Shown in pieces: positions 7,476 to 40,995 of a stretch of DNA of 64,000 nucleotides. This DNA comes from Muricauda sp. SCSIO 64092 (lineage in GTDB: Bacteria > Bacteroidota > Bacteroidia > Flavobacteriales > Flavobacteriaceae), in NCBI RefSeq assembly GCF_023016285.1, contig NZ_CP095413.1, positions 62,001 to 126,000 of the forward strand. The letters are read 5' to 3'. Position 1 is the stretch's first letter. Each line of letters starts with the position of its first letter. Both the position numbers and the translations under genes were made by a program. The notes beneath the pieces are model-generated. The model was not told where the DNA came from. It worked only from the letters and a program-made list of their open reading frames with translations, and made no database searches.

Positions 7476-7481
7476 CAACTC

Positions 7482-9014
7482 CTAACAAATCACACAAAAG
7501 CCAGGGTCATCCGTTAAATTGGGACCGGGATTGCGCCAAAAACCAATACCATCGATCAGTTCATCCGCATTTTCAGGCCCCCAGACCCCAGCCGCATAAC
7601 CGTACATGCGAACATTTTTTCCATTCTTCCAATAGTCCAAAATGGGGTCGACAAATTCCCAGGCCGCCTCCACTTCATCTGCTCGTGCATATAGTGTTGC
7701 ATCGCCTTGCATACAATCCAATAATAAGCGTTCATAAGCCTCCATGACATGGGTCTGTGCCAAATTGGAATAGTAAAAATCCAAGTTGGCCCGTTCCACT
7801 TTAAATCCTTGACCAGGCACTTTTACACCAAACTTGATTAAAATTCCCTCGTCCGGCTGGATTCGAATCACCAATTTATTATCCTTACTGTTCATCCCTG
7901 AGTCTTGAAATATTTGGTGATGGGGTGTTTTAAAATGGATGACCGCTTCAGTCACTTTGGTTGGCATCCGCTTGGCCGTACGCACATAAAAAGGTACACC
8001 TTCCCACCGCCAATTGTCCACAAAAAACTTAATGGCCGCATAGGTTTCCGTAGTTGAATCGGAATCCACACCTTCCTCTTCCCGATATCCCTGCACCTGC
8101 TCCCCATCGATTGACGAAGCCATATATTGTGCTCTAATGGTTTGTATATGCAAGGTTTTTTCATCCTTCATGATACGCAATGATTTCAATGCCTTTACTT
8201 TTTCGTTGCGAATATCCTCCGGGGCATCACTAATTGGGGGCTCCATCACGATCAAGGAAACAATTTGTAACAGGTGGTTTTGGAACATATCCCTCAAGGC
8301 CCCTGATTTATCATAGTATCCACCCCTTTTTTCGACCCCAACACTTTCGGCGTTGGTAATCTCCACATGATGGATATAGTTTCTGTTCCACAAGGGCTCA
8401 AAAATACTATTGGCAAATCGGGTCACTAAAAGGTTTTGAACTGTTTCCTTCCCCAAATAATGATCTATTCTATAAATCTGCTGTTCCCGAAAATGGTGCT
8501 GCAAGCCTTCGTTCAATGCCTTTGCCGTATCCAGACTGTAGCCAAACGGCTTTTCCACGATCAAACGTTTCCAACCGTTCCTTTGGGTATTTAACCCTGC
8601 TTTGGCCAAGTTTTTGGCAATGGTCTCATATAGGGTGGGCGGAGTGGATAAGTAGTAAATGATGTTCCCAGAGGTGTTGTGCTCATTTTTTAAATCCGCT
8701 ATCCGTTTACGAAGACCGTCGTACGAAGTGTCATAGTCGCTTCCCAAATCCTCATAAAAGAATTGGTCTGAAAACTTGGAAATATAGTTCGACTTTAAAT
8801 TCGCTATTCGTTCCTTCAGGTACGTACTTTCCAAAACCACTTTATTCCGGAAATCCATATCCGTCATGTCACTGCGGCTCACTCCCAAAACCACGAAGTT
8901 TTCAGGTAGTTGCTGCGCTATGAAAAGATTGAAAAGTGCAGGTACCAACTTCCGGGCCGTTAAGTCGCCGGAGGCACCAAAGATCACCAACATTTGATTT
9001 TCGGTTTTTTTCAT
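7482..9014 (-). CDS. zwf: Glucose-6-phosphate 1-dehydrogenase
   Basis: 510 residues, full length for the family. The N-terminal Rossmann motif is VIFGASGDLTARKLVPALF (about residue 10). The substrate site RIDHYLGKETVQNLL carries the catalytic His pair context, and EPLWNRNYIHHVEIT and GYYDKSGALRDMFQNH follow. It oxidises glucose-6-phosphate to 6-phosphogluconolactone with NADP+. The stop lies only 6 bp from the heptamer array, so the array is the 3' flank of zwf. The start is divergent from gnd with 110 bp between. Confidence 0.97.
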   Translation of the reverse strand: MKKTENQMLVIFGASGDLTARKLVPALFNLFIAQQLPENFVVLGVSRSDMTDMDFRNKVVLESTYLKERIANLKSNYISKFSDQFFYEDLGSDYDTSYDGLRKRIADLKNEHNTSGNIIYYLSTPPTLYETIAKNLAKAGLNTQRNGWKRLIVEKPFGYSLDTAKALNEGLQHHFREQQIYRIDHYLGKETVQNLLVTRFANSIFEPLWNRNYIHHVEITNAESVGVEKRGGYYDKSGALRDMFQNHLLQIVSLIVMEPPISDAPEDIRNEKVKALKSLRIMKDEKTLHIQTIRAQYMASSIDGEQVQGYREEEGVDSDSTTETYAAIKFFVDNWRWEGVPFYVRTAKRMPTKVTEAVIHFKTPHHQIFQDSGMNSKDNKLVIRIQPDEGILIKFGVKVPGQGFKVERANLDFYYSNLAQTHVMEAYERLLLDCMQGDATLYARADEVEAAWEFVDPILDYWKNGKNVRMYGYAAGVWGPENADELIDGIGFWRNPGPNLTDDPGFCVIC

Positions 9015-20100: not shown

Positions 20101-23100
20101 ATGTTTGCCAGCGCGATCGCCTTTAAGGGGGACATCAGTTCCTGGAACACAAGCAGCGTGTCCAATATGGGCCATATGTTTGCTGTCGCAACCGCCTTTG
20201 ATCAAAACATCGGTTCCTGGGACACCGGCGGGGTGACCGATATGACCGGCATGTTTCTAAGTGCAAATACATTTAACCAGGACATCGGTTCCTGGAACGT
20301 GGCCAAGGTGGAAAATATGGACTTTATGTTCCAGGGCGCAACCGCCTTTGACCAAAACATCGGTTCATGGGAGACGGGCAACGTGGCCAACATGTCAGGA
20401 ATGTTCCGGCAAGCAACCGCATTTGATCAAAACATTGGTTCATGGAATATGGCCAGCGCAACCAATATGGGATCCATGTTCCGGGAGGCAAGGGCCTTCA
20501 ACCAAAACATCGGTTCCTGGAATGTGGCCAGCGTAACCAATATGGGCCATATGTTTTTTCTTGCAACGGCTTTTGACCAAAACGTTGGTTCCTGGAATGT
20601 GGCCAAGGTCACCACAATGCAAACCATGTTTTCTGGGGCAACGGCCTTTGACCAAAACATTGGTTCCTGGAATGTGGCCAGAGTGGAAAATATGGGATCG
20701 CTATTCCAGGACGCAACCGCCTTTAACCAGGATATCGGTTCCTGGAATGTCGGCAATGTAACTACTATGGGCTCCATGTTCAAGGGCGCAACCGCTTTTA
20801 ACCAAAGCATTGGTTCCTGGAATGTGGGCAATGTGACCAATATGGTCTCCATGCTCGATGGCGCGAGCGCCTTTGACCAGAATCTGGGGGCTTGGAACCT
20901 GGGGAAACTAAGCCTTGGCGGCTCCATGCTCAACGGTACTGCACTCTCTGTGGACAATTGGGACAACACCCTCATCGGTTGGTATGGGAAGAACCTTACC
21001 AACACCCCCACCATCGGGGCCTCCGGCCTGACCTACTGCAAGGCTTACGAAGAGCGTGCCGCGCTCACCCTCAAAATTACCGGCGACAGCCCGGAGGACA
21101 CCGATCCAACGCCCCGGTGCAAGTCGCTAGTGACGCTCACACTGGGTACCAACGGCACGGCCACCCTGGATCCCGCCCTTGTGGACAACGGTTCCAGCGA
21201 TACCTGCGCAAGCGTCTCGCTGAGCATTTCCCCGAACAATTTCACGACCTCCAATACCGGCGTAAATACGGTGACCCTTACGGTGACCGACGGCAATGGG
21301 AACTCGGATACCTGCCAGGCCACGGTAAACGTATGGGAGGAAGATCCCACAAGCGTATTTGTCACCACCTGGAACACGACCTATTTTGGCAGGTCCGACG
21401 ATAACTCCATCACCATCCCTGCCACGGGGACCTACGATGTGGACCTCGGCAACGATGGCTCCTTTGAATTGGTGGACCAAACCGACATCACCGAGATAAA
21501 TGTCACCACCTATAATTATCCTGCCGGGGAGATACAGGTGGCCCTCCGGAATGCCATCTCTGGGAACGGGACCCTGGAAAGGATAAGCTTTTGGACATAC
21601 GCCTATGCGGCCGATAGGGATAAACTGCTCTCCGTGGACCAGTGGGGCAGCAGTATCTCCTGGAGCACTATGAGGTCTGCATTTGACGGCTGTAGCAATC
21701 TGGACGTTAAAGCGACCGACACGCCCAACCTGGGTAGCGTGATCGGTATGTCCAGTATGTTTTCCGGGTGTACCTCACTTAAGGGGAATACGAGCTTCTC
21801 CAACTGGAACACCAGCAAAGTGACGAATATGCGCAATATGTTCAGTGGTGCAAGCGCCTTTGACCAGGACATCAGTTCCTGGAACACCGGCAACGTGGCC
21901 AGTATGGCCAATATGTTCAAAGGGGCAACCACCTTTGACCGGGACATCGGTTCCTGGGACACAGGCCAGGTGGAATCCATGAGCGGCATGTTTTACGGGG
22001 CAACCGCCTTTAACCAGGACATTGGTTCCTGGAACACCTCCAAGGTATATTATATGACCAACATGTTCAATGGCGCAACCGCCTTTGACCAGGACCTGGG
22101 CAATTTGAGCCTGAAAAAGCTGGCCTATGGCGCCCATATGCTGGACAATACAGCGCTTTCCGTTGACAACTGGGACGCTACACTGATCGGTTGGCACAAT
22201 CAGGACCTAAGCAAGATCAATACTGTAAACATCGGTGCCCTGGGACTGGTCTATTGCCATGCCTATAGACAGCGCCAAGAGTTGGAGTTGGAGTTTGATT
22301 TCAACTTTATCGGCGACAGCCCAAAGGTTTCCCGGCCGGTGGCATATTGCAAGACGGCCTCAGTCCAACTGGGTACCAATGGCACGGTCACCCTGGAACC
22401 ATTACTTGTGGATAACGGTTCCTACACTTTCTGTGGGGTCGAGTCCTTGTCCTATTCCGTGTCCCCAAACATCTTTTCCACCAACCATCTTGGCCCAAAC
22501 ACCGTGACCCTTACCGTGAAATCCGCCTCCGGCCATACGGACACCTGCCGGACCACGGTAAATGTAATGTATCATGATCCCAAAAGCGTATTTGTCACCA
22601 CCTGGGACACCACCAAAACCAGCAACGGCTCGTCCGAGAGCAACGAAATCGCAATCCCCGCCATTGGGACCTACCATGTGGACCTTGGCAATAACGGGTT
22701 TTATGAACTGACGAACAAGACCGGGACCATAACCGTGGATGTCACCAAATATTTCAACCATACTACCGGTAATAAATTTACCGCCGGGGAGATCCAGGTG
22801 GCCCTTCTTAATACCGCTTCCGAGAACAAGAAACTGGAGGGGATACAGTTCAACAATACAGGCGACAAGCATAAGCTACTCTCCGTGGACCAATGGGGAA
22901 GTAGTATTGCGTGGACCTCCATGGAGAAAGCATTTCACGGCTGTACCAACCTGGAGGTCAAGGCCACGGATGCCCCGGATCTTAGCAAGGTGACCAGTAT
23001 GGAAAGCATGTTCCGCGGGTGTTCCTCATTTATGGGGAATGCGAACCTCTCCAAGGTGACCCTCTCCAACTGGGACACCGGCAACGTGACCGATATGAGC

Positions 23101-26100
23101 TACATGTTCGCTGGCTGTAGCGCGTTTACTGGAACAGCAACGGACTTTTCCAACTGGGACACCCGTAAGGTGACCAATATGACTGGCATGTTCAATGGCG
23201 CAACCGTCTTTGACCGGGACATCGGTTCCTGGGATGTGGGCAAGGTGACCACTATGACGTGGATGTTTGAGGATGCAACTTCCTTTAATCAGGACATCGA
23301 TTCCTGGAATACAGAAAGCGTATCTGACATGACCGGCATGTTTTCCATCGCAAGCGGCTTTAACCAGGACATCGGTTCCTGGAATGTGGGCAACGTGACC
23401 AACATGACCAACATGTTCAATTACGCAACCGCCTTTGATCAGCACCTGGGGGATTGGAACCTGGGGGCCCTGGTCACAAGCATGCGTATGCTGGATGGTA
23501 GTGGGCTCTCGATTGCCAACTGGGACGCGACGCTCAAAGGCTGGCACAAACAGGACTTTACCAACACGCCCACCATCGGTGCCGATGGCCTGGTCTACTG
23601 CACCGCCTATGCCGAGCGTGCTGCGCTGCCTTTCAACTTTGTCGGGGACAGCCCGGAAATCCTGCCAAATGCCGAGTGCCATCCATCGCTGACATTGCAA
23701 CTGGACCTGGACGCCAGCGCCACGGCCACCCTTACGACCGACCTTGTGGACAATGGTTCGAGCAAGACTACCTGTGGACCCGTTTCGCTGAGCCTGTCCC
23801 AGAGCAACTTTACCACCGCCGATCTCGGCACAAAAACGGTGACCCTTACCGCAACGGACCCCAATGGGAATACGGACACCTGTACCACCACAGTGACCGT
23901 GGAGAGTTATGCTGTCTCCACCTTCGTAACCACCTGGGACACGACCAAGACCAATGTCCACTCATCCGCGAGCAACTCCATCACCATCCCCGCCACGGGG
24001 ACCTACGATGTGGACGTGGGCAATGATGGTATCTATGACCTGTTCGATCAGACCGATGAAACTACCGTGAATGTCACCAACTATAGCGATCCCGACGGCA
24101 ACAACTACGTGGCAGGGGAGATACAGGTGGCCCTTCGCAACCACTCCAGTACCGAAAAACTGACCAGGATACATTTCAACAATGTGGGTGACCGGGAGAA
24201 GCTGCTCTCCGTGGACCAATGGGGCAGCAGTATCCCCTGGAGCACCATGGAGGATGCATTTTACGGCTGTAGCAATCTGGAAGTTACGGCAACCGATGCC
24301 CCCGACCTGAGCAACGTGACCAGTATGTACTGGATGTTTACCGGATGCACGAAACTCAAGGGAGAGACGAGCTTCTCCACCTGGAACACCAGCAATGTGA
24401 CCGATATGACCAGCATGTTTAGTGGTTTGACCGCCTTTAACGGGGACATTGGTTCCTGGAACACCGGCAACGTCACCACTATGGTCGGCATGCTTTTGGG
24501 CACAACCGCCTTTGACCAGAACTTGGGCAAATGGGACTTGGGGGCATTGAGCAGTGACAGTTTCGGTGGTGGTTTCGCCATGCTCAACCACAGTGGGCTC
24601 TCCGTGGACAACTGGGACAACACGTTGATCGGTTGGCACGGGCAGAACTTCACCAACACGCCCACTATTAACGCTTTAGGGCTGGTCTACTGTAAGGCCT
24701 ATGCCGAGCGTGACGCCCTGACCCTCAACATTTCCGGTGACCTCGTGTCAGATGCCGATCCGGAGGCGGTATGCAAGGAAGCGGTGACGCTCCGATTGGG
24801 CCCCGACGGTACGGCCACCCTGGCCCCCGCTCTTGTAGACGACGGTAGCGTGGGTTGCGGAGGCACCTCGCTGAGCTTATCGAAGAACAGCTTTACCACT
24901 TCCGATATTGATGATAAGCACACAGTGATCCTGACGGTCACCGGTGGCAACGGCAAGACGAACTCCTGCACGGCCACGGTAACCGTGGAGGATGCCGCAA
25001 GCGTATTTGTGACCACCTGGGACACGACCAAATCCGGTATATCCGACGGGAACTCCCTCAACATTCCTTTGTCAGGGACCTACGATGTGGATCTGGGCAA
25101 TGACGGCAGCTATGAACTGCTGGACCAGGGCGGGACCCTTAGCGTGGATATCACCGAACATAACTATACCGCCGGGGAAATACAGGTGGCCCTCCGCAAT
25201 GCTACCTCCGGTTCCGGGGACCTGACCGGGATACGTTTCGCCCTAAATCAGACGAATGACAAGCTGAAGCTGCTCTCGGTGGACCAATGGGGCAGCAGCA
25301 TAGCCTGGGGCTCCATGAACAATGCATTTGCCCAATGTTCCAATCTGGACGTGCTGGCAACCGATTTTCCCGACCTGAGCAATGTGACCAACATGGGCTA
25401 CATGTTTTTCGGGTGTACCGCACTCAAGGGAACAACAACGAACAACTTCTCTGGTTGGAACACAAGCAATGTGACCAATATGGGATCCCTATTTTCGGGT
25501 GCAAGCAACTTTAACCAGGACATCGGTTCCTGGAACACCAAGAACGTGACCCATATGGGCGACATGTTTCGGAATGCCACCGTCTTTGACCAGGACCTCG
25601 GTTCTTGGAATACCAGCAGGGTCACCAATATGGGTGGCATGTTCAATGGTGCAACAACCTTTAATCAGGACCTCGCTTCCTGGGATACCGGCAATGTGAC
25701 CAATATGTTTTACATGTTCTCCAGTGCAAGTGCTTTTAACGGGAACATCAATTCCTGGAACACCAACAAAGTGACCAGTATGGCCAACATGTTCAATGGC
25801 GCAAGCGCCTTTAATCAAAACATTGGTTCCTGGGACACGGGCGAGGTACTCAATATGGAAGACATGTTTGCCAGGGCGAGTGCCTTTAACGGAAACATCG
25901 GGTCCTGGAACACGGCCAGGGTGAAAAATATGTCCGATATGTTCCGGAGCGCGAGTTCCTTTAACGGCGCAATTGGTTCGTGGAATGTGGGCAACGTGAC
26001 CAACATGCAAAGGATGTTTTTTAATGCAAGCGTCTTTGACCAGAATTTGGGTGGCTGGTATGTGGAGCAGTTGGCCAATGGAACCGATATGCTCTACAAC

Positions 26101-29100
26101 TGTGGGCTCTCCATGGAGAGCTGGGACAACACGCTGATCGGTTGGAAGAATCAGGACTTCACCAACACGGTCACCATTGGCGCCTCCGGACTGACCTACT
26201 GCACCGCCGGCACCCAGCGTGCTGCGCTGACCCTCAACATAACCGGCGATAGCGCGGGAACTCCCCTGCCACTAGCCCTGTGCCAGGAAGTGGTCGTGCT
26301 CCAACTGGACACCAACGGTACGGCCACCCTGACGACCGACCTTGTGTACGACGATCCTGGTGATGCCTGCGGGATTGCCTCACTGAGCCTGTCCCAAAGC
26401 AGTTTCACCATCTCCCACCTGGGTGCGAACACGATTACCCTAACGGTGGCCGAGGGCAACGGCGACACGGCCACCTGTCAGACCACGGTGAATGTAATGG
26501 CGGATGATCCCGCAAGCGTATTTGTGACCACCTGGGACACCACCAAATCTGGCTCCTCCAAAAGTAACTCCATCACCATCCCCGCCACGGGGAACTACGA
26601 TGTGGACCTGGGCAATGATGGCTCCTTTGAATTGGTGAACCAGGAAGGGACAACCGAAATCAATGTTACCACCCATAATTATCCCACAGGGGAGATAAAG
26701 GTGGCCCTCCGCAATGCCGCCTCCGGTTCCGGGAACCTGACCGGGATACGTTTCGCCCTAAATCAGACGGACGACAAACTGAAGCTGCTCTCGGTGGACC
26801 AATGGGGCGGCAGCATCGCCTGGAGCACTATGGAGGAGGCATTTCTCCAATGTTCCAATCTGGATGTGCTGGCAAGCGATGTTCCCGACCTGAGCAATGT
26901 AACCAATATGAGCTGGATGTTCGCCGAATGTACCTCACTTAAAGGAACGGCGACGAACAACTTCTCCGGTTGGAATACCGGCAATGTGACCGATATGGAG
27001 GGCATGTTTTCCGGTGCAAGCACCTTTAACCGCGACATCGGTTCCTGGGACACCAGTAGTGTGACCAATATGAAAAACATGTTTTCTGACGCAAGTGCTT
27101 TCAATACAGACATTGGTTCCTGGAATGTTTCCAGCGTGACCTATATGGACTTCATGTTCCGGAACGCAAGCGCATTTGACCAGGACATTGGTTCCTGGGA
27201 CACCAGCAGTGTGAGCAGTATGTGGGGCATGTTCTATGGCGCCACGGTCTTTGACCAGGACATCGGTTCGTGGAACACGGCCAGCGTGACCCGTATGGAC
27301 GGCATGTTTTATGAGGCAATCAACTTTGACCAGGACATCAGTTCCTGGAACACAGAAAGCGTGATCAATATGCGCTACATGTTCCACTCCGCAAGCACCT
27401 TTAACCGGGACATCGGTTCCTGGAACACCAGCGAGGTGACCGATATGGGCAACATGTTTTATGATGCAAGTGCCTTTGATCGGGACCTGGGGAATTGGGA
27501 TATGGCAAAGGTGACCAATGGCACTGGTATGCTTGACAACAGTGGGCTCTCGGTTGCCAACTGGGATGCCACGCTGATCGGTTGGTACGGCCAGAGGCAG
27601 GGCTTTACCAACGATGTGACCATCGGGGCTTCCGGCCTGGGTTACTGTACCGCCACTACCGAACGTGCCGCGCTGATAGATGAAGGCTTTAACATTACCG
27701 GTGATGGTGTGGAAACCGTTCCCCCGGAGGCCCTGTGCCAGCAAGTGGTCGTGCTCCAACTGGACACCAACGGTACGGCCACCCTGACGACCAACGATGT
27801 AGACAACGGTTCCAGCGATGCTTGTACGAAGGAGGACGTCACACTAAGTGTTTCCCAGAAAAATTTCACCACCGCCAACCTTGGCGCAAACGTGATCACC
27901 CTTACGGTGACCGATGGCAACAACAACACAAACACCTGTCAGGCCACGGTGAACGTATGGGCGGACGATCCCGCAAGCGTATTCGTGACCACCTGGAACA
28001 CCACCAAATCCGGCACGACCAATAGCAACTCCGTCCGTATCCCCGCTGTGGGGACCTATGATGTGGACCTGGGCGCTGACGGCAGCTATGAACTGACGAA
28101 CAAAAACGGGACTATCGATATAAATGTCACCGACCATAACTATGCTGCAGGTCAGATACAGGTGGCTCTCCGCAATACCTCCGGTTCCGGGGGCCTGACC
28201 GGGATACGGTTCAACAATGGAGGTGACAGGCGGAAATTACTCTCGGTGGACCAATGGGGCAGCGATATCCACTGGAGCACCATGGAGGACGCATTTCATG
28301 GCTGTATATATTTGGAGATCAAGGCCACTGATGCCCCCGACCTGTCCGGGGTGACCAATATGTCCAAGATGTTCAAATACTGTAGTAGATTCCTCACGGG
28401 GACAACAGGCCTCCCCGGTTGGAATGTGTCCACCGTGACCAATATGTCCGGTATGTTTTACATTGCAAGGGCCTTTAACGGGGACATCGGTTCCTGGGAT
28501 GTGGGTAATGTGACCAATATGAGTGAGATGTTTACCGGTTGTGAGTCGTTCGAGGGGACAACGGGCCTGTCCAATTGGAACGTGTCCGGCGTGACCGATA
28601 TGAGCTACATGTTTTCCGCAGCAACCCTCTTTAATGCAGACATCGGTTCGTGGAACACTGGCAACGTGACCGATATGAGCTGGATGTTCCGGTTTGCCGC
28701 TGCCTTTGACCAGGACCTGGATTCCTGGAATGTGGCCAAGGTGACCACTATGGTCAACATGTTCCGGGCCATGGACACCTTTGATCAGGATCTGGGTTCC
28801 TGGGACACCGGCAGCGTGACTGATATGTCCGGCATGTTTGCCTACACAAAAGCCTTTAACGGGGACATCAGTTCCTGGAATACAAGCAGTGTGAACAATA
28901 TGAGCGGCATGTTCCTGAATGCATACGCCTTTAACCGGGACATTGGTTCGTGGAACACCGGCAACGTGACCAATATGACCTGGATGTTTGGTACACTACC
29001 AAATGATACAAATAGCACAAGTACATTTAACCAGAACATCGGTTCCTGGAACACCAGCGGTGTGACCGATATAAGCTACATGTTTAGTGGCGCAGGCACT

Positions 29101-32100
29101 TTTGACCAGGACCTGGGCACATGGGACATGGGGCAGGTGACCAATGGCACCGATATGCTCAAAAACAGTGGGCTCTCGGTTGCCAATTGGGACGCCACGA
29201 TTATTGGTTGGGAAGATCAGGACTTTACCAACGATGTGACCATCGGGGCTTCCGGCCTGACCTACTGTTCCGCCGCTACCGAACGTGCTGCACTGATATC
29301 TGAAGGCTTTAACATTACCGGTGACAGCCTGTCAAATTTCGATCCGGAAGCTGCATGCAAGGAGGAGGTGACGCTCCGATTGGGCTCCGACGGTACAGCC
29401 ACCCTGGATGCTTCCCTTTTGGACGACGGTTCCTGGGATACCTGCGGGGACCTGGACTTCAAAGTATCCGATGGTAGTGGAGGTACTGTTGATAAGAGAA
29501 CCTTTACCACCTCCCACCTTGGCCCGAACCCGGTCACCCTGACGGTGACCGACCCCGATTTGAATACAGATGAGTGCGGGGCCACGGTAATCGTGGAGCA
29601 TCCCGCAAGCGTATTTGTGACCACCTGGGACACGACCAACGGCACCTCCATCACCATTCCGGCCACGGGGACCTATGATGTGGACCTGGGCAATGATGGA
29701 ACCTATGACCTGTTCGACCAGCAAGGGACCCTGACCGTGGATATCACTAACCATACTGCCGACAAGATACAAGTGGCCCTCCGTAATGCTGTATCTGGGA
29801 ATGGTGACCTGACCGGGATACAGTTTAATAATACAGGCGACCGACAGAAACTGCTTTCCGTGGACCAATGGGGCAGCAGCATAGCCTGGACCAACATGGA
29901 GGGCGCATTTTACGGCTGTAGCAAAATGGATGTCAGGGCAACCGATGCCCCCGACCTGAGCAATGTGACCCATATGGGCTACATGTTTTTCATGTGCTAC
30001 TCACTTCGGGGAACGGCAAGCTTCTCCAATTGGAACACCAGTAATGTGACCAATATGACCGCCATGTTTCAAGCGGCCGAATCCTTCGACCAGGACATTG
30101 GCAGCTGGAACGTAAGCAAAGTTACGAACATGAACTTCATGTTTGCGGATGCTGAATCCTTTAACAAGGGCATTGACGGTTGGGACGTAAGCAGTGTCAA
30201 AAACATGACCGAAATGTTTTCTAACGCATGGCGCTTTGATCAGGACATTGGTAGCTGGAACACCAGCGGCGTGACCGATATGGGCAAGATGTTCTACCTT
30301 GCCGAATACTTCAATCAGGACATCAACGGTTGGGATGTGAGCAATGTTAGAAATATGGAAGGGATGTTCTACCATGCTCAGGATTTCGACCAGGACATTA
30401 GCGGCTGGAGCACCGGCAGCGTGACTGATATGGAATCCATGTTCAATAACGCATACGACTTTAACCAGGACATTAGTTCCTGGGACACGAGCGAGGTGCA
30501 AAATATGCGTAATATGTTCATTGGCGCAAGGGTCTTTAACAGGGACATCGGTGATTGGAACACCAGCAAGGTGACCGATATGGGCAAGATGTTCTATGGT
30601 GCAAGGGCCTTTAACGGGGACATCGGTTCCTGGAACACCAGTGGCGTGACCGATATGAACTATATGTTCTCCCTTGCCGAATACTTCAATCAGGACATCA
30701 GCGGTTGGAACACCGGCAACGTGACCAATATGCTTTCCATATTCAATGGTGCAACTGCTTTTGACCAAAACTTGGGGGATTGGGGTATGGCAAAGGTGAC
30801 CGATGGCGCCAATATGCTGGACGACAGCGGCCTCTCGGTGGCCAACTGGGACGCCACCCTCAAGGGTTGGCACGGCCAAAACCTTACTAACACACCCGAT
30901 ATAGGCGCTCTCGACCTGGTTTACTGCACCGCCGGTACCGAGCGTGCCGCGCTGACCCTCAACATTGTCGGCGACAAAGCGGGAACTCCCCTGCCACTAG
31001 CCCTGTGCCAGCAAGTGGTCGTGCTCCAACTGGACACCAACGATGCGGCTACCCTGACGCCAGACCTTGTGTACAACGGCCCTGACAATACCTGTGGGAT
31101 TGCCTCACTGGGCCTGTCCCAAAGCAGTTTCACCACCTCGCACCTGGGTGCGAACACGGTCACCCTAACCATGATCGATGGCCACAACAACACAAGCACC
31201 TGCGAGACGACCGTGAACGTATGGGCGGACGATCCCGCAAGCGTATTCGTGACCACCTGGGACACGACCAATGATGGTCAGTCCAACAATAACTTCATCA
31301 CCATCCCCGCCATTGGGACCTACGATGTGGACCTGGGCGCTGATGGCGATTATGAACTGACGAACCAGACCGTGTCCGGGTCCCTGCTCGTGGATGTCAC
31401 CACCCATAACTATGCCGCCGGGGAGATACAGGTGGCCCTCCGCAATACCTCCGGTTCCGGGGGCCTGACCAGGATATGGTTCAACAATGAGGGGGACAAG
31501 AAGAAGCTGCTCTCGGTGGACCAATGGGGCAGCAGTATCTCCTGGAGCACCATGGAAAAGGCATTTTGGAACTGTAGCAATATGGACGTTCTGGCAACCG
31601 ACGCCCCCGACCTGAGTAATGTGACCAATATGGGCTATATGTTTGCCGAATGTACCTCACTTAAGGGAATAGCAACGAACAATTTCTCCGATTGGAATAC
31701 GAGCAGTGTGACCCATATGAAGGGCATGTTTGCCCTCGCCGCAACTTTCGACCAGGACATTGGTTCCTGGAACACCGACAGTGTGGAGAATATGTTCGAG
31801 ATGTTCTATGATGCAAGTGCCTTTAACGGGGACATCGGTTCCTGGAACACCAGCGGCGTGACCGATATGGGCAAGATGTTCCACTTTGCCGTAACCTTCA
31901 ATCAGGACATCAGCGGTTGGGATGTGAGCAATGTTAGCAATATGGAAGGGATGTTCTACCATGCTCAGGATTTCGACCAGGACATTAGCGGCTGGAACAC
32001 CGGCAGCGTGACCAATATGAAATCCATGTTCCAGAACGCATACGACTTTAACCGGGACATCGGTCCCTGGGACACGAGCGAGGTGCAAAATATGCGTAAT

Positions 32101-35100
32101 ATGTTCATTGGCGCAAGTGCCTTTAACGGGGACATCGGTTCGTGGGACACCGGCAAGGTGACCGATATGGGCTATATGTTCTATGGTGCAAGTGTCTTTA
32201 ACGGGGCCATCGGTTCCTGGAACACCAGCAACGTGACCAATATGGACTCCATGTTTGGTATATCAAGTAGTGCAACTGGCTCAAGTACATTTAACCAGGA
32301 CCTCGGTTCCTGGGACACCGGCAGTGTGGAGAATATGGCCGACATGTTCAATGGTGCAAGTGCCTTTGACCAGGACATCAGTTCATGGGACACGGGCGAG
32401 GTGCAAAATATGGCTAATATGTTCACAGGTGCAAGTGCCTTTAACCGGGACATCGGCGGTTGGAACACCAGTAAGGTGACCAATATGAGCGAGATGTTCA
32501 AGAATGCAAGCGCCTTTGACCAGAACTTAAAGGATTGGTACATGGGGGCATTGACCACTGGTGCCAATATGCTGGACAACAGCGGGCTATCCGTGGATAA
32601 CTGGGACGCTACGCTGATTGGTTGGCACAGTAAGGACTTTACCAACACACCCGATATAGGCGCACTTAACCTGATCCACTGCAGGGCCGCTATTGAGCGT
32701 GCAGATTTGATACAAAATAGCCTCAAAATTACCGGAGACAGCAAGGCAGCGACCCAGACAAAGGCAGATTGCAAGGCAGCAACACTAGAACTGGGTACCG
32801 ATGGTACGGCCACCCTGACTATCGAAGATGTGGACAACGGCAGTGATGGTTGCGGAATCTCCTTGAGCCTGTCCGAAACCAGCTTTGATGCCACCGACCT
32901 TGGTGGCAACACGGTGACCCTTACCGTGACCGATCCCGACAGCACCAGTAAGACCTGTACGGCTACGGTGACCATTGAGGACAACATGGCTCCCACACCC
33001 TCCTGTAAGGACATTACCGTGCAATTGGACACTTCGGGCAGCACAACGATTACTACATCGGACATCGACAACGGCTCCTCCGATAACAGTGGTACCACCG
33101 TATCGCTATCCTTGGACAAGACGACTTTCGGCTGTTCAGATGTGGGGGACAACACAGTGACCCTGACCGTAACGGATGGCAGCAGCAACTCGGATAGTTG
33201 CACGGCCACCGTAACCGCGGAGGATAAAACGGCCCCTACGCCAAGTTGCCAGGACATTACCGTACAACTGGACGCTTTGGGAAGTGCGACTATTGTGGCG
33301 GCGGACGTGGACAACGGTTCCAGTGATACCTGTGGTAGCGTCACCCTAGCGGTATCCGAAACCAACTTTGGCACTTCCGACCTTGGGAACAACACGGTCA
33401 CCCTTACCGTGACCGACCCCGGGGGCAACTCCGACAGCTGTACCGCCACCGTAACGGTGGAGGACAAGACCGCCCCCACCCCAAGTTGCCAGGACATTAC
33501 CGTACAACTGAGCGCCTCGGGCAATGCAACGATCGCCACATCGGACATCGACAACGGCTCCTCCGACAACAGTGGCACCACCGTATCGCTATCCTTGGAC
33601 ACCACCACCTTTGGTTGTTCCGATCTGGGGGACAACACGGTGACCCTTACGGTAACGGACACCAGCAACAATTCGGACAGCTGTACGGCCACGGTGACGG
33701 TGGAGGACAAAACGGCCCCCTCACCAAGTTGCCGGGACATCAGTGTACAACTGGGCGCCTCGGGCAGCGCAACGATCACAACATCGGACATCGACAATGG
33801 TTCCAGCGATACCTGCGGGAGCATTACCCTGGCCTTGTCCACGACCAGCTTCGGCGCCACCAACCTTGGGGACAACACGGTGACCCTGACGGTAACGGAC
33901 GGCAGCAGCAACTCGGACAGCTGTACGGCCACGGTGACCGTGGGGGACAGCACGCTCCCCACCCCAGGTTGCCAGGACATCAGCGTACAACTTAGCGCCT
34001 CGGGCAGCGCAACGATCGCCACCTCGGACATCGACAACGGCTCCTCCGACAACAGCGGTACCGCCGTTACCCTTTCCCTCTCCAAGACCAGCTTTGGCTG
34101 TTCCAATCTGGGGGACAACACGGTGACCCTTACCGTAACGGACGCCAGCAACAACTCGGACAGCTGTACGGCCACCGTGACCGTTGAGGATAAAACGGCC
34201 CCCACGCCAAGTTGCCGGGACATCAGCGTACAACTGGGGGCCTCGGGCAGCGCAACGATCACCACCTCGGACATCGACAACGGTTCCAGCGATACCTGTG
34301 GAAGCGTCACCCTGGGGTTGTCCAAGACCAGCTTTGGTGCCAACGACCTTGGGGACAACACGGTGACCCTCACGGTAACGGATGGCAGTAGCAACTCGGA
34401 CACCTGTACCGCCACGGTGACCGTGGAGGACAAAACGGTCCCTACCCCAAATTGCAAGGACATCAGCGTACAACTTAGTGCCGCGGGCAGCGCAACGATC
34501 ACAACATCGGACATCGACAACGGCTCCTCCGACAACAGCGGTACCGCCGTTACCCTTTCCCTCTCCGGGACCAGCTTTGGCTGTTCCAATCTGGGGGACA
34601 ACACGGTAACGCTTACTGTAACGGACGGCAGCAACAACTCGGACAGCTGTACCGCCACAGTGACCGTGGAGGACAAAACGGCCCCCACAACAGGTTGCCA
34701 GGACCTTACTGTGGAACTGAACGCCTCGGGCAGTGCAACGATAGCCACATCGGACATCAACAACGGTTCCAGCGATGCCTGCGGGAGTGTCACCCTGGCC
34801 TTGTCCAAGACCGGCTTTGCCGCCAACGATCTTGGGGACAACACCGTGACCTTGACAGTGACCGATCCCAGCGGCAACTCGAACAGTTGTACCGCCATAG
34901 TGACCGTGGAGGACAACACGGTCCCCACCCCAAGTTGCCGGGACATCATCATACAACTGGGCACTTCGGGCAGCGCAACGATTGCCACCTCGGACATCGA
35001 CAGCGGTTCCTCGGACAACAGTGGCACCGCTGTATCGCTATCCCTTGACAGAACAAGTTTTGGCTGTTCCGATTTGGGGGACAACACGGTAACGCTTACT

Positions 35101-38100
35101 GTAACGGACGCCAGCAACAACTCGGACAGCTGTACCGCTGTGGTGACCGTGGAGGACAAAACGGCCCCCGCACCAAGTTGCCAGGATATCAGCGTACAAC
35201 TGGGCGCCTCGGGCAGCGCAACGATCGCCACATCGGATATCGACAACGGTTCCAGCGATGCCTGCGGTAGCGTTACCCTGGCATTGTCCAAGACCAGCTT
35301 TAGCGCCAACGACCTTGGGGACAACACGGTGACCCTGACGGTGACCGACCCCAGCAACAACTCGGACACCTGTACCGCTATGGTGACGGTTGGGGACAGC
35401 ACACTCCCCACACCAAGTTGCAAGGACACCAGCGTACAACTTGGCGCCACGGGCAGCGCAACGATCGCCACATCGGATATCGACAACGGTTCCTCCGACA
35501 ACAGTGGCGCCGCCGTTACCCTTTCCCTGGACACCACCAGCTTTGGCTGTTCCGATTTGGGGGACAACACCGTGACACTTACCGTAACGGACGCCAGCAG
35601 CAACTCGGACAGCTGTACCGCCACAGTGACCGTGGAGGATAAAACGGCCCCCGCACCAAGTTGCCGGGACATTACCGTGGAACTGGATGCCTCGGGCAGC
35701 GCAACGATCACAACATCGGACATCGGCAACGGCTCCTCCGACAACTGCGGGAGCGTCTCCCTGGCATTGTCCAAAACCGGCTTTGATGCCAACGACCTTG
35801 GGGACAACACGGTAACCTTGACGGTGACCGACCCCAGCAGCAACTCGGACAACTGTACCGCTGTGGTGACCGTGGAGGACAGGACCGCACCTATACCAAG
35901 TTGCCGGGACATTACCGTACAACTTAGTGCGGCGGGCAGCGCAACAATCGCTGTGGCGGACGTGGACAACGGCTCCTCCGACAACAGCGGCACCGCCGTT
36001 ACCCTTTCCCTGGACACCACCAGCTTTGGCTGTTCCGATGTGGGCGACAGCACGGTGACCCTTACGGTAACGGATGGTAGCGGTAACTCGGACAGTTGCA
36101 CCGCCACCGTGACCGTGGAGGACAAGACCGTCCCTACGCCAAGTTGCCAGGACATTACCGTACAACTGGATGCCTCGGGCAGCACAACGATTGCAGCGGC
36201 GGACGTGGACAACGGTTCCAGCGATACCTGTGGGATTGCTTTCCTGGACCTTTCCGAGACCAGCTTTACGGCGACCGACCTTGGGGACAACACGGTGACG
36301 CTTACCGTGACCGATCCCGGCGGCAACTCGGACAGTTGTACCGCTGTGGTTACCCTAGAGGATAGCACTGCCCCTATCCCAAGTTGCCAGGACATTACCG
36401 TACAACTGGACACCTCGGGCAGCACAACGATTGCCACATCGGACATCGACAACGGCTCCTTCGACAACAGCGGCACCGCCGTATCGCTATCCCTTGACAG
36501 AACAAGTTTTGGCTGTTCCGACGTGGGCGACAACACGGTGACCCTTACGGTAACGGACGCCAGCAACAACTCGGGCAGCTGTACCGCTACGGTAACGGTA
36601 GAGGACGATACTGCCCCAACGGCGGTGTGCCAACAGCAGGGGGTCATATTCCAACTGGGTACCAATGGCCTGGCCATTCCGGATGTCGCCCTTCTGGACG
36701 GCGGTTCGAGCACTCCCTGCGGTAGCGTTTCGCTAAATGTAGTCCCGAACAGCCTCACCACTGTTGGCACACACACGGTGACCCTAAGGGCAATCAATGG
36801 CAACAACAAAATGCACAGTTGCACCACCGTGGTGACTGTGGAGGACAAGATCCTCCCCACCCCCATCTGCAAGGGCATTACCGTGCAGTTGGACGCCTCG
36901 GACGGTGCGACAATATCCGCATTGGACATGGACAACGGTTCCTCCGACAACAGCGGCACCGCTTTGGCCCTTTCCCTGGACAGGACAGACTTTGGTTGTT
37001 CCGATGTGGGGGACAACACAGTGACCCTTACCGTAACGGACGCCAGCGGCAACTCGGATGGTTGTACCGCTACCGTGACCGTGGAGGACAACACTGCCCC
37101 CACGGCCGTATGCCAACAACAGGGGGTTACATTCCAATTGGATGCAAATGGCCTGGCCATTGCGGATGCCGCCCTTCTGGACAACGGTTCCAGCGATACC
37201 TGTGGGAGCATTGCCCTAAGGGTGTCACCTAGCAGCTTTACAGCCGATGACCTTGGAGACAACACCGTGACCCTAATAGTGGACGATGGCAGCAACATTG
37301 CGACCTGCCAGACCACAGTCTCCGTGGTAGACGTCACGGCCCCCACGCCAAATTGCCGGGACATCAGTGTGGAACTGGGCGCTTCGGACAGCGCAACGAT
37401 TGCCATATCGGACATCGACAACGGCTCCTCTGACAACAGCGGCACCGCCCCTTCCCTTTCCCTCTCCAAAACAAACTTTGGCTGTTCCAATGTAGGGGAC
37501 AACACGGTGACCCTTACGGTAACGGACGCCAGCGGCAACTCGGACAGTTGTACCGCTACCGTGGCCGTGAAGGACAGGACCGCCCCTACGGCACTGTGCA
37601 AGACATCGGTAGCGCTGGAATTGGGCACCGATGGCATGGCCACCCTGGATGCTTCCCTGGTGGACGACGGTTCCAGCGATAACTGCGGTAGCGTTTCGCT
37701 GAACGTGTTCCCAAGTAGTTTTACAGGTTCGTTCCTCGGCACGAACACGGTAATCTTGAGGGTAATCGATGGCAGCAACAACTCGGACAGCTGCACGGCT
37801 TCGGTGACCGTGGTGGACAAAGAGGCCCCCAACGCCATCTGTAGCGACATCACCGTCCAACTGGATGCAGCGAACAGTGCGACGGTTTCTTCATTGGACA
37901 TCAACAACGGCTCGTACGACAACAGTGGTACCGCTATGTCCTTTTCCTTGGACAGGACCAATTTTGACTGCTCCGATGTGGGGAACAACACGGTGACCCT
38001 TAACGTAACGGATGCCGGCGGCAACCTAGCCGAGTGTACCGCTTTGGTGGCCGTCGAGGATAGGACCCCTCCCACGGCGAGCGATCCGGCACCGATGAGC

Positions 38101-40995
38101 GTACAGTGTCTTCCCGAAGCGGATATCACGGTAGTGACCGATGAAGCCGACAATTGTACGACCATCCCAACGGTCACCTTTATAGGCGATGCAAGCGATG
38201 GGAAGCAGAACCCGGGAACGATTACCAGGACCTATAGGGTGACCGATGCCTCAGGGAACAGTACCCATGTGTACCAGACGATTACGGTAAACGATACCCA
38301 GGCACCCACGGCCAGCAATCCATCACCAATCAACGTACAGTGCCCGTCCGATATCCCCGTTCCAAACATTACAGTGGTGACCAATGCCACGGACAACTGT
38401 ACGGCCAACCCAACAGTGGCCTTTGTAGGTGATACAAGCGATGGCAACAGCAACCCGGAAACGATTACCAGGACCTATAGCGTGACGGATACCGTTGGGA
38501 ACAGTACCACCGTCACCCAGACCATCACGGTGGAAGATACACAGGCCCCTACGGCAAGCGACCCGACACCGATCAATGTACAGTGTAGCGCCCCGGCGCC
38601 GGACACTGCAGTGGTGACCAATGCCACGGACAATTGCGGCACGCCAACCATCACCTTTGTAAGTGATATGAGCGATGGCAACAGCAACCCGGAAACGATT
38701 ACTAGGACCTACAGGGTGGGCGATGCCGCAGGGAACAGTACCACCGTGACCCAGACCATTACGGTAAGGGACACGACACCCCCTACGGCCAGCAACCCGG
38801 TAGCCGTAAGCGTACAGTGTTCCTCCAATGTCCCTGCCGTGGACACCGCGGTGGTGACCGATGTTACGGACAATTGCGGCACACCAACGGTCAGTTTTGT
38901 AGGTGATACAAGCGATGGGAAGCAAAATCCGGAGACGATTACGAGAACCTATCGGGTGAGCGATTTGGCTGGGAACAGTACCACCGTGACCCAAACTATT
39001 ACGATAAGGGATACCACCGCCCCTGCGGCCAGCAACCCAACGGCAGTGAGCGTACAATGTGCATCCAATGTCCCTGCCGTGGACACCACTGTGGTGACCG
39101 GAGTTTCGGACAACTGCACGACCAACCCAACGGTCGCCTTCCTAAGTGATGTGAGCGATGGACAAAGCAATCCAGAAGTCATCACACGGACCTACAGGGT
39201 GAGTGATTTGGCGGGGAACAGTACTACCGTGGCCCAGGTGATAACGGTTAACGACACCCAGGCGCCCATGGCGAGCGATCCGGCACCGATCAACGTACAA
39301 TGCAGTGCTCCACCACCGGATATCACAGTGGTAACCGATGAAGCGGACAATTGTACGGCCAGTCCAACGGTTACCTTTGTCAATGATACAAGCGATGGGA
39401 AACAAAACCCGGAAACAATCACCCGGACCTATCGGGTGAGCGATGTCGCGGGGAACAGTACCACCGTAATCCAGACCATCACGGTTAACGATACCCAGGT
39501 ACCTACGGCGAGCGATCCAGCTCCGATCAACGTACAGTGCAGTGCGCCGGCACCGGATATCACGGTGGTGACCGGTGGGTCCGACAACTGTGGGACACCA
39601 ACGGTGACCTTTGTCAATGATACAAGCGATGGGAAGCAAAATCCGGAAACGATTACGAGAACTTATCGGGTGAGCGATATCGCGGGGAACAGTACCACCG
39701 TCACCCAGACCATTACGGTAAGGGATACCACCCCTCCTACAGCATTGTGCAAGGCGGCAACAATCCAACTGGGTACCAACGGCATGGCCAATTTGGACGC
39801 TTCCATGGTCGATAATGAATCCAGCGATGCCTGTGGGAGCATTGGCCTGGGCGTGTCCCCAAGCAGCTTTTTGGCCACCCACCTTGGTGACAACACGGTG
39901 ACCCTGACCGTGAGCGACAATAGTGGTAATACGGACAGTTGTACCGCCACAGTTACCGTTAAGGACAGCACGGCACCAACGGCCAGTTGCCAGGACATTA
40001 CCGTGGAACTGGACACGACGGGCAGTGCAACGATTGCGGCAGAGGACGTGGACAACGGCTCGTTTGACAACAGCGGTACCGTGTCGCTTTCCCTGGACAG
40101 GACGGGCTTCGGTTGTTCCGATGTGGGGCAGAACACGGTTACCCTAACAGTCACCGAAAATAGTGGAAATACGACCAACTGTACCGCCACGGTAACGGTA
40201 CAGGGAACAACCGCACCGCTGGCCATTGTGACCAACAGCGGACCGATCTGCCAGGGCTCTACCCTACAGTTGAACGAAATAAGTGGCCTGGGAACCTCAT
40301 GGTCCTGGACCAGCGATGGAAATGCCACATTCAGCAATCCTGACGTACAAAATCCTGAAGTGACCAATGTTTCGGATGGGGAAGAGTTCACCCTAACGAT
40401 GGCACTGGCCAATGGATGTACCGTTACGGGCACTACCACTGTGTTTATTCTGGGGCTCCCCGTCCTGGAGACGGAGGACGAACAGGTATTCTGTACCCTG
40501 GAGAACCCTACGGTATCGGATTTGGCAGCTTCCGGCAACGGTACCCTGCGTTGGTATTCGGAAGCGAACAGTACTACGGAACTGGGGACCGATGTTTCCC
40601 TTGGGGACGGTGCCGTCTATTACGGATCGTTGGAGGATGGCAATGGATGTACCTCCGATAGGGTTGCCGTGACGGTAAGGATTTCCATGGAGGGTTGTGA
40701 CGAATTTCCGGACGCGGACAGACGCGGCTTCTCCCCGAACGGCGATGGGGTCAACGACACCTTTTCCATTTCCTGGCTGAAGAACGATTACCCCAATTAT
40801 AGCATGTCTGTCTATGACCGTAACGGTACTATGGTGTACCAAGGGAACATCAGCACACCGGAATGGGACGGCAGCGCGGACCAGGGAATTGTCCTGGGGG
40901 ATGGTAAACTGCCCAATGGGGTGTACTATTATACGATAGATTTCGGGGACGGCACTACACCGCCGGTCCAGGGAATCGTCTATTTGAACCGGTAG
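11176..40995 (+). CDS. Giant BspA/DUF285-HYR surface protein with T9SS type B sorting domain (9,939 aa)
   Basis: A single uninterrupted frame encoding a roughly 1 MDa secreted protein. A signal peptide ([14 protein letters not shown], residues 16-29) is followed by 16 modules (residues 32-7270). Each opens with F-x-TTW-[DN]-T and a PKD-like stretch ([15 protein letters not shown]), then carries 3 to 12 DUF285 repeats of 25 residues, and ends with an HYR-like cap. Next come 21 HYR-like domains (7271-8963), 7 of a second type (8964-9518), two more of the first, Ig-like domains, and a C-terminal domain starting [12 protein letters not shown] (about 9850-9939). That last domain is typical of gliding-motility-associated, T9SS-exported proteins. 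DUF285/BspA repeats are linked to adhesion in other bacteria; a role here as a giant adhesin or surface fibre is inference. GC content by eye is far above the neighbours (57-65% in sampled 60-base lines against 40-47%). Confidence 0.95.
11269..32985 (+). repeat. 16 tandem BspA/DUF285 modules within the giant gene
   Basis: Module starts (codon for F of F-x-TTW) are at 11269, 12391, 13516, 14671, 15715, 16807, 18148, 19636, 21358, 22591, 23923, 25006, 26521, 27982, 29614 and 31246, all in frame. Lengths run from about 1.04 to 1.74 kb. By my count the DUF285 units per module are 4, 4, 4, 3, 3, 7, 9, 12, 5, 6, 3, 9, 8, 10, 11 and 12, about 110 in all. The unit is W-[ND]-[TV]-x-x-V-x-x-M-x-x-MF-x-x-A-x-x-F-[ND]-x-x-I, 25 residues or 75 bp. 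Each module closes with an [IN]GA-x-GL-x-YC linker and one HYR-like cap of the C type. Confidence 0.92.
32986..38064 (+). repeat. 21 alternating HYR-like domains (S type / C type)
   Basis: Domains of about 80 residues with the frame [14 protein letters not shown] ... SDIDNGSSD ... [11 protein letters not shown] ... [12 protein letters not shown]. Odd-numbered domains read SSDNSGT and FGCSD (S type). Even-numbered ones read SSD[TAN]CG and F-x-A-[NT]-D (C type). The alternation holds for all 21. Each domain therefore has three cysteines, with the middle one at one of two places. The HYR-like label comes from the general pattern of such flavobacterial repeats. Confidence 0.9.
38065..39729 (+). 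repeat. Block of 7 second-type HYR-like domains
   Basis: Seven units of about 79 residues with frame [13 protein letters not shown] ... TDNC[GT]-x-PTVTFV ... [18 protein letters not shown] ... [12 protein letters not shown]. Each has two cysteines. The block lies between an S-type domain and a C-type domain of the other array, so the alternation resumes after it as if it had been inserted. Confidence 0.9.
39730..40995 (+). other. C-terminal end of the giant protein: two HYR-like, Ig-like, T9SS sorting domain
   Basis: Residues 9519-9677 are one C-type and one S-type HYR-like domain. Residues about 9680-9840 contain two Ig-like segments ([11 protein letters not shown], then a [10 protein letters not shown] region). 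From about residue 9850 the gliding-motility C-terminal domain reads [40 protein letters not shown] and [15 protein letters not shown]. This domain directs export by T9SS and surface attachment in Bacteroidota. Confidence 0.9.

What the first reader, a model, noticed from the sequence alone, without database searches (positions are those of the whole stretch)
32986..38064. Strict S/C alternation of HYR-like domains with reciprocal cysteine loss
All 21 tandem domains alternate. Odd ones have NSG in place of the middle NCG/TCG and keep a cysteine at FGC. Even ones keep the DTC/DNC/DAC cysteine and have A or another residue where FGC would be. From general knowledge of flavobacterial repeats of this sort (TVQLDASG...DNGSSDNCG...FDCSNVG...), the common form has both cysteines, so each type here seems to have lost the opposite one. 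The caps of the 16 upstream modules are all C type, so the alternation continues from module 16 onward. An odd cysteine per domain leaves the partners in neighbouring domains, so interdomain disulfides stapling S to C along the fibre are possible. The duplicated unit would then be a two-domain dimer of about 480 bp.
Basis: partly seen in the sequence, partly recalled or inferred. Interest (0 to 1): 0.75.

Follow-up and report, generated by a model that had tools for sequence, protein, structure and literature searches.

The report
Bacterial fibre with alternating disulfide staples
A giant bacterial surface protein is built from a chain of small domains whose cysteines appear to bond each domain to the next one at every second joint only, and the same head-to-tail cysteine rule holds in thousands of related joints from other genomes, so the position of each missing bond seems to be written into the sequence.

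Summary
In detail: 21 of 21 HYR-like domains alternate S (cysteine C3 only) and C (C2 only), after 16 of 16 C-type caps. The interdomain-disulfide idea is strongly supported and now has a direction: C3 of domain n with C2 of domain n+1. In relatives the common domain (B) has both cysteines, but they do not behave as an intradomain pair. In four homolog sets (386 protein entries, 8431 junctions) a C-terminal-pole cysteine in n matches C2 in n+1 at all but 18 junctions; 320 lack both. In the first held-out set 1 of 3101 junctions disagrees, against 117 expected by shuffling. Coevolution places C2 and C3 at opposite poles and makes C3(n)-C2(n+1) the strongest of 6400 interdomain couplings. C1-C4 is the intradomain bond. 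So the usual HYR array is inferred to be a continuous disulfide ladder; in this family every second rung is missing, both partners lost together. Inside the window the alternation spread by duplication of a 483-bp dimer, but the rule also holds in many other arrays. Not shown: the bonds themselves, any Cys-Cys distance, and what the missing rungs do (hinge is inferred).

The parts
11176..40995 (+). single ORF, 9939 aa: signal peptide (GLFAQ), 16 DUF285/BspA modules each with an HYR-like cap, 21 alternating HYR-like domains, 7 HYR_4C domains, a C-S pair, Cys-bearing tail, CHU_C T9SS type B signal
32680..32682 (+). cysteine near the end of the 16th DUF285 module (LIHC), proposed partner of the cap's C2
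   Evidence: 85 of 85 own modules counted and 42 of 42 modules in set-4 relatives have a Cys in the last 60 aa and a C2 in the cap; invariant, so not a covariation test
32761..32979 (+). 16th cap domain, type C
32980..38058 (+). 21 tandem HYR-like domains, S C S C ... S
   Evidence: PF02494 72-74 bits on two overlapping pieces of the array
33133..33135 (+). example staple, first half: C3 of domain 1 (S), C-terminal pole (EF loop)
   Evidence: position; pole
33331..33333 (+). example staple, second half: C2 of domain 2 (C), N-terminal pole (BC loop)
   Evidence: position; pole
38059..39723 (+). seven HYR_4C (PF23237) domains with NVQC/DNC cysteines between an S and a C domain; NVQC lies in the AB region, like the extra cysteine of classical HYR
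39724..39963 (+). C-type HYR-like domain after the HYR_4C run
39964..40203 (+). last S-type domain; next cysteine 16 residues downstream
40204..40992 (+). tail with five cysteines and CHU_C T9SS type B sorting domain

Best explanation
Each HYR-like domain has an internal disulfide, C1-C4. C2 sits in a loop (BC) at the N-terminal pole and C3 in a loop (EF) at the C-terminal pole, so C3 of domain n meets C2 of domain n+1 and the two form a disulfide across the joint. Ordinary arrays (B B B ...) are therefore continuous covalent ladders. A joint is left open by losing both partners together, which makes the domain before it type C (no C3) and the one after it type S (no C2). Classical HYR and HYR_4C domains do the same with an AB-region cysteine in place of C3. 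In the window protein and its paralogs every second joint is open, so the fibre is a string of S-C dimers, stapled inside each dimer and unstapled between dimers, probably alternating stiff two-domain rods with more flexible joints on a cell-surface or secreted T9SS protein. Shown here: the cysteine rule, its direction, the two-pole geometry from coevolution. Inferred: that the pairs are oxidised, and the mechanical role.
For:: set 1 (119 proteins) 7 of 2237 junctions discordant, shuffled mean 157, minimum 135; set 2 (96 proteins, not used to form the rule) 1 of 3101, shuffled mean 117, minimum 97; 49 of 50 variable runs perfect; reverse rule 101 discordant; 2 of 808; 8 of 2285. Read one by one, 11 of these 18 are not breaches (8 rows with C2 displaced by a longer loop or the alignment, 3 rows of P0039 flagged by another cysteine pair); 7 remain, all of them a C2 with no partner before it; 320 junctions lack both; they occur in 77 protein entries and form 104 clusters at 60% identity, C2 replaced by S, V, G, D, T or A. 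C1-C4 intradomain phi 0.98-0.99. Direction: array starts that carry C2 have a Cys in the 60 aa upstream in 204 of 221 cases, S starts in 28 of 55 (p 2e-11); ends with a C-terminal-pole Cys have one downstream in 236 of 253, C ends in 12 of 30 (p 1e-11); the two control groupings p 0.27 and 0.14. Own genome: 10 of 10 ORFs whose last domain is S have a Cys 15-17 aa downstream, 3 of 3 whose last domain is C have none before +113. C-N-S occurs in P0220. Coevolution: C3(n)-C2(n+1) ranks 1 of 6400; N-terminus, BC and FG loops form one pole, EF and AB loops link to the G-strand end, no cross-pole pair in the top 80; intradomain C2-C3 ranks 2763 of 2850; couplings 14-1, 53-66, 53-65, 14-2 remain when only joints with both cysteines and no other cysteine near the loops are used, and are weaker or absent in reverse. 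VKOR and SprA are in the genome.
Against: No coordinates, so no Cys-Cys distance. One breach in the genome, S-S in the 7958-aa ORF, and 7 in homologs. Within the strictly alternating arrays of this genome the reverse pairing fits almost as well (12 of 19 variable runs perfect, forward 17 of 19), and in coevolution the reverse pair C2(n)-C3(n+1) is also high (rank 7 of 6400; 13 sd in the stapled-only set). Total cysteine parity gives no support: 8 even and 5 odd of 13 ORFs, the window protein odd with 187. Many arrays begin or end with B and the outside partner is not identified (193 starts, 242 ends); 28 starts are C and 11 ends are S. AB-region cysteines were added to the rule after looking at set 1, though sets 2-4 were then tested unchanged. 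The sets share organisms and some proteins, so junctions are not independent. Acidic sites at the joint (columns 34, 64) are kept at open joints, so open joints may still be stiff.
Confidence: 0.88

Rival explanations
1. B domains carry an intradomain C2-C3 disulfide, and only at C-S joints do C2 of the C domain and C3 of the following S domain pair across the joint. Inside an array this gives the same strings as the best explanation.
For: Within runs C is almost always followed by S and S preceded by C (sets 1-3, runs of three or more: 197 CS, 5 CB, 5 BS, no CC or SS). Arrays of this genome run C ... S, and in the window and L009 HYR_4C domains are inserted at S|C and not C|S boundaries. The reverse pair is the 7th strongest interdomain coupling.
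Against: C2 and C3 fall at opposite poles: no BC-EF pair among the top 80 couplings, best rank 527; intradomain C2-C3 rank 2763 of 2850. Array ends behave as the best explanation predicts, with controls not significant. S-C followed by a DUF285 module and C-N-S would leave orphans.
Confidence: 0.05
2. The alternation has no structural meaning: a dimer that happened to differ at two cysteines was duplicated many times, and the odd cysteines are free or unimportant.
For: The unit of duplication in the window is a dimer: 21 of 21 nearest DNA relatives at even offset, 483-bp spacing.
Against: The same joint rule holds in 8413 of 8431 junctions of 386 homolog entries, with closed blocks from 2 to 29 domains, different residues replacing C2 in different proteins and 104 clusters of open joints at 60% identity.
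Confidence: 0.04
3. Odd cysteines bond between neighbouring fibres (intermolecular cross-links) and not along one chain.
For: Some cysteines have no evident partner, e.g. the S-S orphan and the fifth tail cysteine.
Against: The dependence is between adjacent domains of one chain and is directional; intermolecular bonding does not predict it.
Confidence: 0.03

Closest known systems
HYR domain (PF02494) arrays
   Same: A window S-C-S-C piece matches in four stretches (73.8 bits for the piece, cut-off 21.7); DNC motif and C-terminal cysteine present in C domains.
   Different: No paper found in the held library describes DNC as an interdomain cysteine. The window family has every second joint open; most joints in relatives are B-B.
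HYR_4C (PF23237), HYR-like domain with 4 cysteines
   Same: Seven such domains follow the array; those that fell in counted runs obey the same head-to-tail rule with NVQC and DNC.
   Different: The C-terminal-pole cysteine sits in the AB region instead of the EF loop.
SasG/Aap alternating E-G5 fibrils (alternation recalled; only the start of the abstract of PMC4458895 seen in the listing)
   Same: Two alternating domain kinds in a long surface fibre.
   Different: [quoted passage not shown] here both kinds are one family differing in joint cysteines.
Isopeptide cross-linked Ig-like domains of surface proteins (PMC5311914, PMC12617251: search listing only)
   Same: Covalent cross-links in Ig-like domains.
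   Different: Those are described as intramolecular isopeptide bonds; here the bond is inferred between domains and is a disulfide.
LDL receptor module array (PMC4500599, abstract start in listing)
   Same: Tandem Cys-rich extracellular modules.
   Different: Its native disulfides are described as intradomain.
Siglec interdomain disulfide (recalled, no call)
   Same: A disulfide between two adjacent Ig-like domains.
   Different: One joint only; no repeated ladder and no open-joint pattern.

Membership tests
HYR domain (PF02494) | Pfam profile match above curated cut-off | tested here: met
   72.4 and 73.8 bits against 21.7 for two pieces of the array
HYR domain (PF02494) | beta-sandwich of immunoglobulin type | tested here: inconclusive
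   [not shown]
DUF285/BspA-type (PARCEL) surface protein | DUF285 profile match in the N-terminal modules | tested here: met
   PF03382 339 and 398 bits on two pieces; TIGR02167 63 bits
T9SS type B cargo | C-terminal CHU_C / Bac_Flav_CTERM signal | tested here: met
   PF13585 70.6 bits; TIGR04131 45.5 bits against 35
T9SS type B cargo | signal peptide, and the T9SS channel SprA in the genome | tested here: met
   hydrophobic start ending GLFAQ, read by eye; SprA_N 445 bits
Interdomain disulfide ladder | co-presence of the two cysteines across each joint, not within a domain | tested here: met
Interdomain disulfide ladder | oxidised bond or sulfur distance under 10 A | not testable with these tools
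   no coordinates returned; no close solved relative by sequence

The most novel reading that the evidence does not exclude
HYR-type arrays are covalent disulfide ladders whose DNC cysteine is an interdomain bond as a rule, and the places where both partners are missing are a heritable code (blocks S B* C) that sets where and how often the fibre bends; in this genome the code has settled on an open joint at every second position in nine of the giant proteins examined.
Probability: 0.5. Interest if true: 0.85.

Novelty: new variant of a known kind. Interest (0 to 1): 0.74.

Why it matters
HYR arrays are frequent (3588 proteins alone scored under E 0.001) and have no close solved structure in the searches made here. 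A rule that reads the covalent connectivity of such a fibre from sequence makes stiffness, block length and hinge spacing of many giant surface proteins predictable, gives the DNC motif a proposed partner, and yields a direct test: S-C dimers should be stapled, C-S dimers not.

Tried and rejected
Total cysteine parity as a test of full pairing: 8 even, 5 odd of 13 ORFs, not informative and not used; for 3 of the 13 (L013, L015+L016 and the second L021 ORF) the script found no signal peptide and the whole frame was counted.

Distance check by structure prediction: one of two jobs used; the tool gives no coordinates, so the second was not spent. A solved relative by sequence: none close (best ColH E 0.006 and Bacillolysin E 0.013).

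The idea that within-array strings alone prove the direction was dropped: they fit the rival (self-contained B plus C-S pairs) equally well. Array ends and coevolution were used to separate the two.

Simple EF-only rule C3(n)=C2(n+1): holds one way (C3 without a following C2 in 1 of 2040, 1 of 2609, 0 of 633 and 6 of 1636 junctions) but leaves many C2 unexplained (108, 425, 128 and 529) until AB-region cysteines are counted.

All 18 discordant homolog rows were listed and read by eye. Eight look like C2 displaced by a longer loop or by the alignment (P0080, P0202, six rows of P0276). Three rows of P0039 are open joints that my AB flag caught because that protein has a further cysteine pair. 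Seven look real: P0063 (2), P0077, L054, L089 (W where its sister domain has the AB cysteine), P0233, P0304. Counts were left as computed.

Rows dropped before counts: domains with more than 14 of 80 columns gapped, junctions with more than 6 residues between domains, runs of one domain; AB-type domains were left out of the coevolution sets. Searches (first, last and transition counts; array ends) kept only runs of three or more domains; one search also dropped repeats of the same end. The listings are the best 120 of 3588, 1543 and 138 proteins; one search kept the best 80 of 521.

Papers: (search listings only) gave no description of interdomain disulfides in HYR arrays; PMC8286594 has no mention of HYR, disulfide or cysteine in its main text (term search); passages of PMC11674741 describe one disulfide linking its catalytic domain to an Ig-like domain, not a ladder. 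Most subscription papers are not in that library.
Full report
What is there. The finding lies in one open frame of 9939 aa (11176-40995 +): signal peptide ending GLFAQ, 16 DUF285/BspA modules each closed by an HYR-like cap, 21 contiguous HYR-like domains (32980-38058), seven HYR_4C domains, a further C-S pair and a T9SS type B tail. Every one of the 21 domains has C1 and C4; odd domains keep C3 (S type), even domains keep C2 (C type), 21 of 21. The 16 caps are all C type. The duplication unit is a dimer of 483-486 bp, and 21 of 21 domains have their nearest DNA relative at an even offset, so the window alone is weak evidence for selection on each domain.

The genome. PF02494 matches are spread over many giant ORFs of the same 5.69-Mb genome (150 of 286 candidates scored). 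Stretches holding 12 further large ORFs were taken; several smaller ORFs with matches were not. Stitched without double counting, 200 domains in runs are 96 C, 92 S, 8 with C2 plus an AB-region cysteine, 3 B (both) and 1 N (neither), with 181 junctions (an AB cysteine counted as the C-terminal-pole one): 91 CS, 77 SC, 5 BB, 4 BC, 2 SB, 1 CN, 1 SS. Nine of the ORFs hold runs with at least three S-C units in a row. The closest named relative met is Flavobacteriaceae bacterium GF1, whose giant proteins show the same alternation; 5 of 11 same-genus genomes searched, this one included, have matches.

The ancestral set. In homologs the usual domain is B. Set 1 is (120 proteins listed, 119 after one own-genome protein was left out), set 2 is (96 new non-own proteins), set 3 is 80 genome loci with record titles (81 translated frames with runs), set 4 is (108 new non-own proteins, 90 with runs). 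Domains counted, AB types left out, are 5260 B, 249 S and 287 C in sets 1-3. Intradomain C2-C3 association is about zero or slightly negative in every set, while C1-C4 is almost perfect (phi 0.98-0.99).

The junction rule. C3 in domain n is nearly always followed by C2 in n+1. C2 without a preceding C3 was almost always explained, in set 1, by a cysteine in the AB region of the preceding classical HYR domain (96 of 99). The rule 'C3 or AB cysteine of n if and only if C2 of n+1' was then fixed and applied to all sets: discordant 7 of 2237 (set 1, where it was formed), 1 of 3101 (set 2), 2 of 808 (set 3), 8 of 2285 (set 4). Shuffling domain order within each array, which keeps composition and relatedness, gave means 157, 117, 90 and 187 and minima 135, 97, 75 and 161 in 1000 shuffles each. 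Perfect runs among those with variation: 55 of 59, 49 of 50, 58 of 60, 113 of 121. Pooled: 386 protein entries, 8431 junctions, 320 lacking both cysteines, 18 lacking one. Read one by one, 8 of the 18 have C2 displaced in a longer loop or by the alignment, 3 (P0039) are open joints flagged because of another cysteine pair, and 7 look real, all of them a C2 with no partner before it. The sets overlap in organisms and partly in proteins, so these are not independent draws; the 320 open joints form 104 clusters at 60% identity and occur in 77 entries, and C2 is replaced by S, V, G, D, T or A in different proteins, which points to many separate losses. Arrays parse as closed blocks S B* C of 2 to 29 domains. 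Strict repeats of at least three S-C units occur in 13 runs of sets 1-3: P0003, P0006, P0010, P0038, P0069, P0071, P0130, P0131, P0200, L022, L023, L032 and L082, of which P0038, L022, L023 and L032 are GF1, and in set 4 (e.g. P0237). Linkers have the same length at stapled and open joints in this genome (C4 to C1 span 17 in 90 of 90 CS and 76 of 77 SC where the pattern matched).

Which way the bond runs. Within arrays the rule also fits a rival in which B is self-contained and C2(n) pairs with C3(n+1) at CS joints; in this genome's alternating arrays the reverse pairing is perfect in 12 of 19 variable runs against 17 of 19 forward. Three results separate them. First, array ends: unique starts that carry C2 have a cysteine within 60 aa upstream in 204 of 221 cases, S starts in 28 of 55 (p 2e-11); ends with a C-terminal-pole cysteine have one downstream in 236 of 253, C ends in 12 of 30 (p 1e-11); grouping by the other cysteine gives p 0.27 and 0.14. 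In this genome 10 of 10 ORFs whose last domain is S have a cysteine 15-17 aa downstream, and the 3 whose last domain is C, followed by another DUF285 module, have none before +113. Second, geometry: mean-field coevolution of 7153 single domains puts the N-terminus, BC loop (C2) and FG loop together, and links EF loop (C3) and AB loop to the G-strand end; no cross-pole pair of these classes is in the top 80 and intradomain C2-C3 ranks 2763 of 2850, while C1-C4 ranks 1. Third, across joints C3(n)-C2(n+1) ranks 1 of 6400 in 4988 pairs at 41.8 sd; the reverse pair ranks 7 at 11.9 sd. Using only joints that have both cysteines (6109 pairs), couplings 14-1, 53-66, 53-65 and 14-2 stay and are weaker or absent in reverse; in that set the C3-C2 columns are nearly constant and the reverse cysteine pair is the higher of the two (13.3 against 7.0 sd), as short S-C blocks would give. 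Removing every pair with a cysteine in columns 0-6 or 13-29 changes nothing (6101 pairs: 14-1 17.6 against 3.2 reversed, 53-66 12.5 against 0.1). These place EF and AB loops of n against the N-terminus and FG loop of n+1. In P0039 the coupled columns 14(n) and 1(n+1) are themselves cysteines at 19 of the 20 joints where column 14 has one, a second staple at a contact that coevolution predicts without it.

Beyond the array. All 85 DUF285 modules counted in this genome, and 42 of 42 in set-4 relatives, end with a cysteine in the last 60 aa and are followed by a cap with C2 (one own cap is B). The two never vary, so pairing there is a proposal. In the first ORF of L021 a DUF285 module with that cysteine is followed directly by HYR_4C domains with DNC, which fits the same proposal. 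HYR_4C domains lie between S and C in the window and in L009; where they fell in counted runs their NVQC and DNC obey the rule, and the S to HYR_4C step was read by eye only.

Mechanism and what is not shown. The likely picture is a fibre in which S-C pairs are covalently stapled rods and C-S joints are free to bend. Oxidation is plausible: a VKOR-family protein and SprA are encoded. Not shown: any disulfide, any distance (the AF2 model has pLDDT 96.3 and pTM 0.73 but no coordinates) and any mechanical effect. Acidic positions at the joint are kept at open joints (D at column 34 in 91% and column 64 in 96% of 304 open joints, 97% and 99% at stapled ones), while column 66 shifts from mostly N to mostly S, so open joints may be ion-stiffened or differently packed. 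That HYR-like acidic clusters bind calcium is an analogy with cadherins, recalled and untested.

Evidence against. One S-S joint in the 7958-aa ORF breaks the rule, and 7 homolog joints do. Cysteine parity is uninformative. Array ends of type B (193 starts, 242 ends), C starts (28) and S ends (11) leave partners unidentified.

Verdict. The larger result is a head-to-tail cysteine rule for HYR arrays, of which strict alternation is one setting. I found no description of it in the held library.

Noticed in passing
window 7107-7476: 370 bp of a 7-bp tandem repeat (AACAACC, about 53 copies) between the G6PD gene (7482-9014 -) and the 6-phosphogluconolactonase/glucosamine isomerase-family gene (6284-6994 -), i.e. 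upstream of the latter; a second tract lies at genome position about 644,600. Could be phase-variable.
   Followed up: partly
P0039 (set 1): A protein whose domains carry a second cysteine pair, VCL of domain n and DC of domain n+1 (19 joints), i.e. a likely second interdomain staple; it is present even at three joints that lack C3 and C2. P0177 and P0198 have one such joint each or two in one of them.
   Followed up: partly
L015 and L016 (one 7958-aa ORF, around aa 6099): The only S-S junction found in this genome; it leaves one C3 without a C2 partner, perhaps from loss of a C domain.
   Followed up: partly
window 32181-38177 (- strand): A 1998-aa open frame runs antisense to the repeats; it looks like a by-product of the codon make-up of the repeat, not a gene.
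   Followed up: no
window 40204-40992 and paralogs: Ten of ten S-ending ORFs have a tail with exactly five cysteines, while the three that end in a DUF285 module have a lone Cys (MDC/KDC) after it; tail cysteines seem matched to what precedes them.
   Followed up: partly
entry-domain column 66 (FG loop) and exit-domain column 53, sets 1-4: Column 66 shifts from N/S at stapled joints to S/G at open joints, and column 53 from V/I to L: the joint surface changes with the staple.
   Followed up: partly
P0175 (set 2): A protein of the choanoflagellate Salpingoeca rosetta (PTSG_08193) is among the set-2 homologs and was counted there; eukaryotic HYR-like arrays deserve their own test of the rule.
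   Followed up: no
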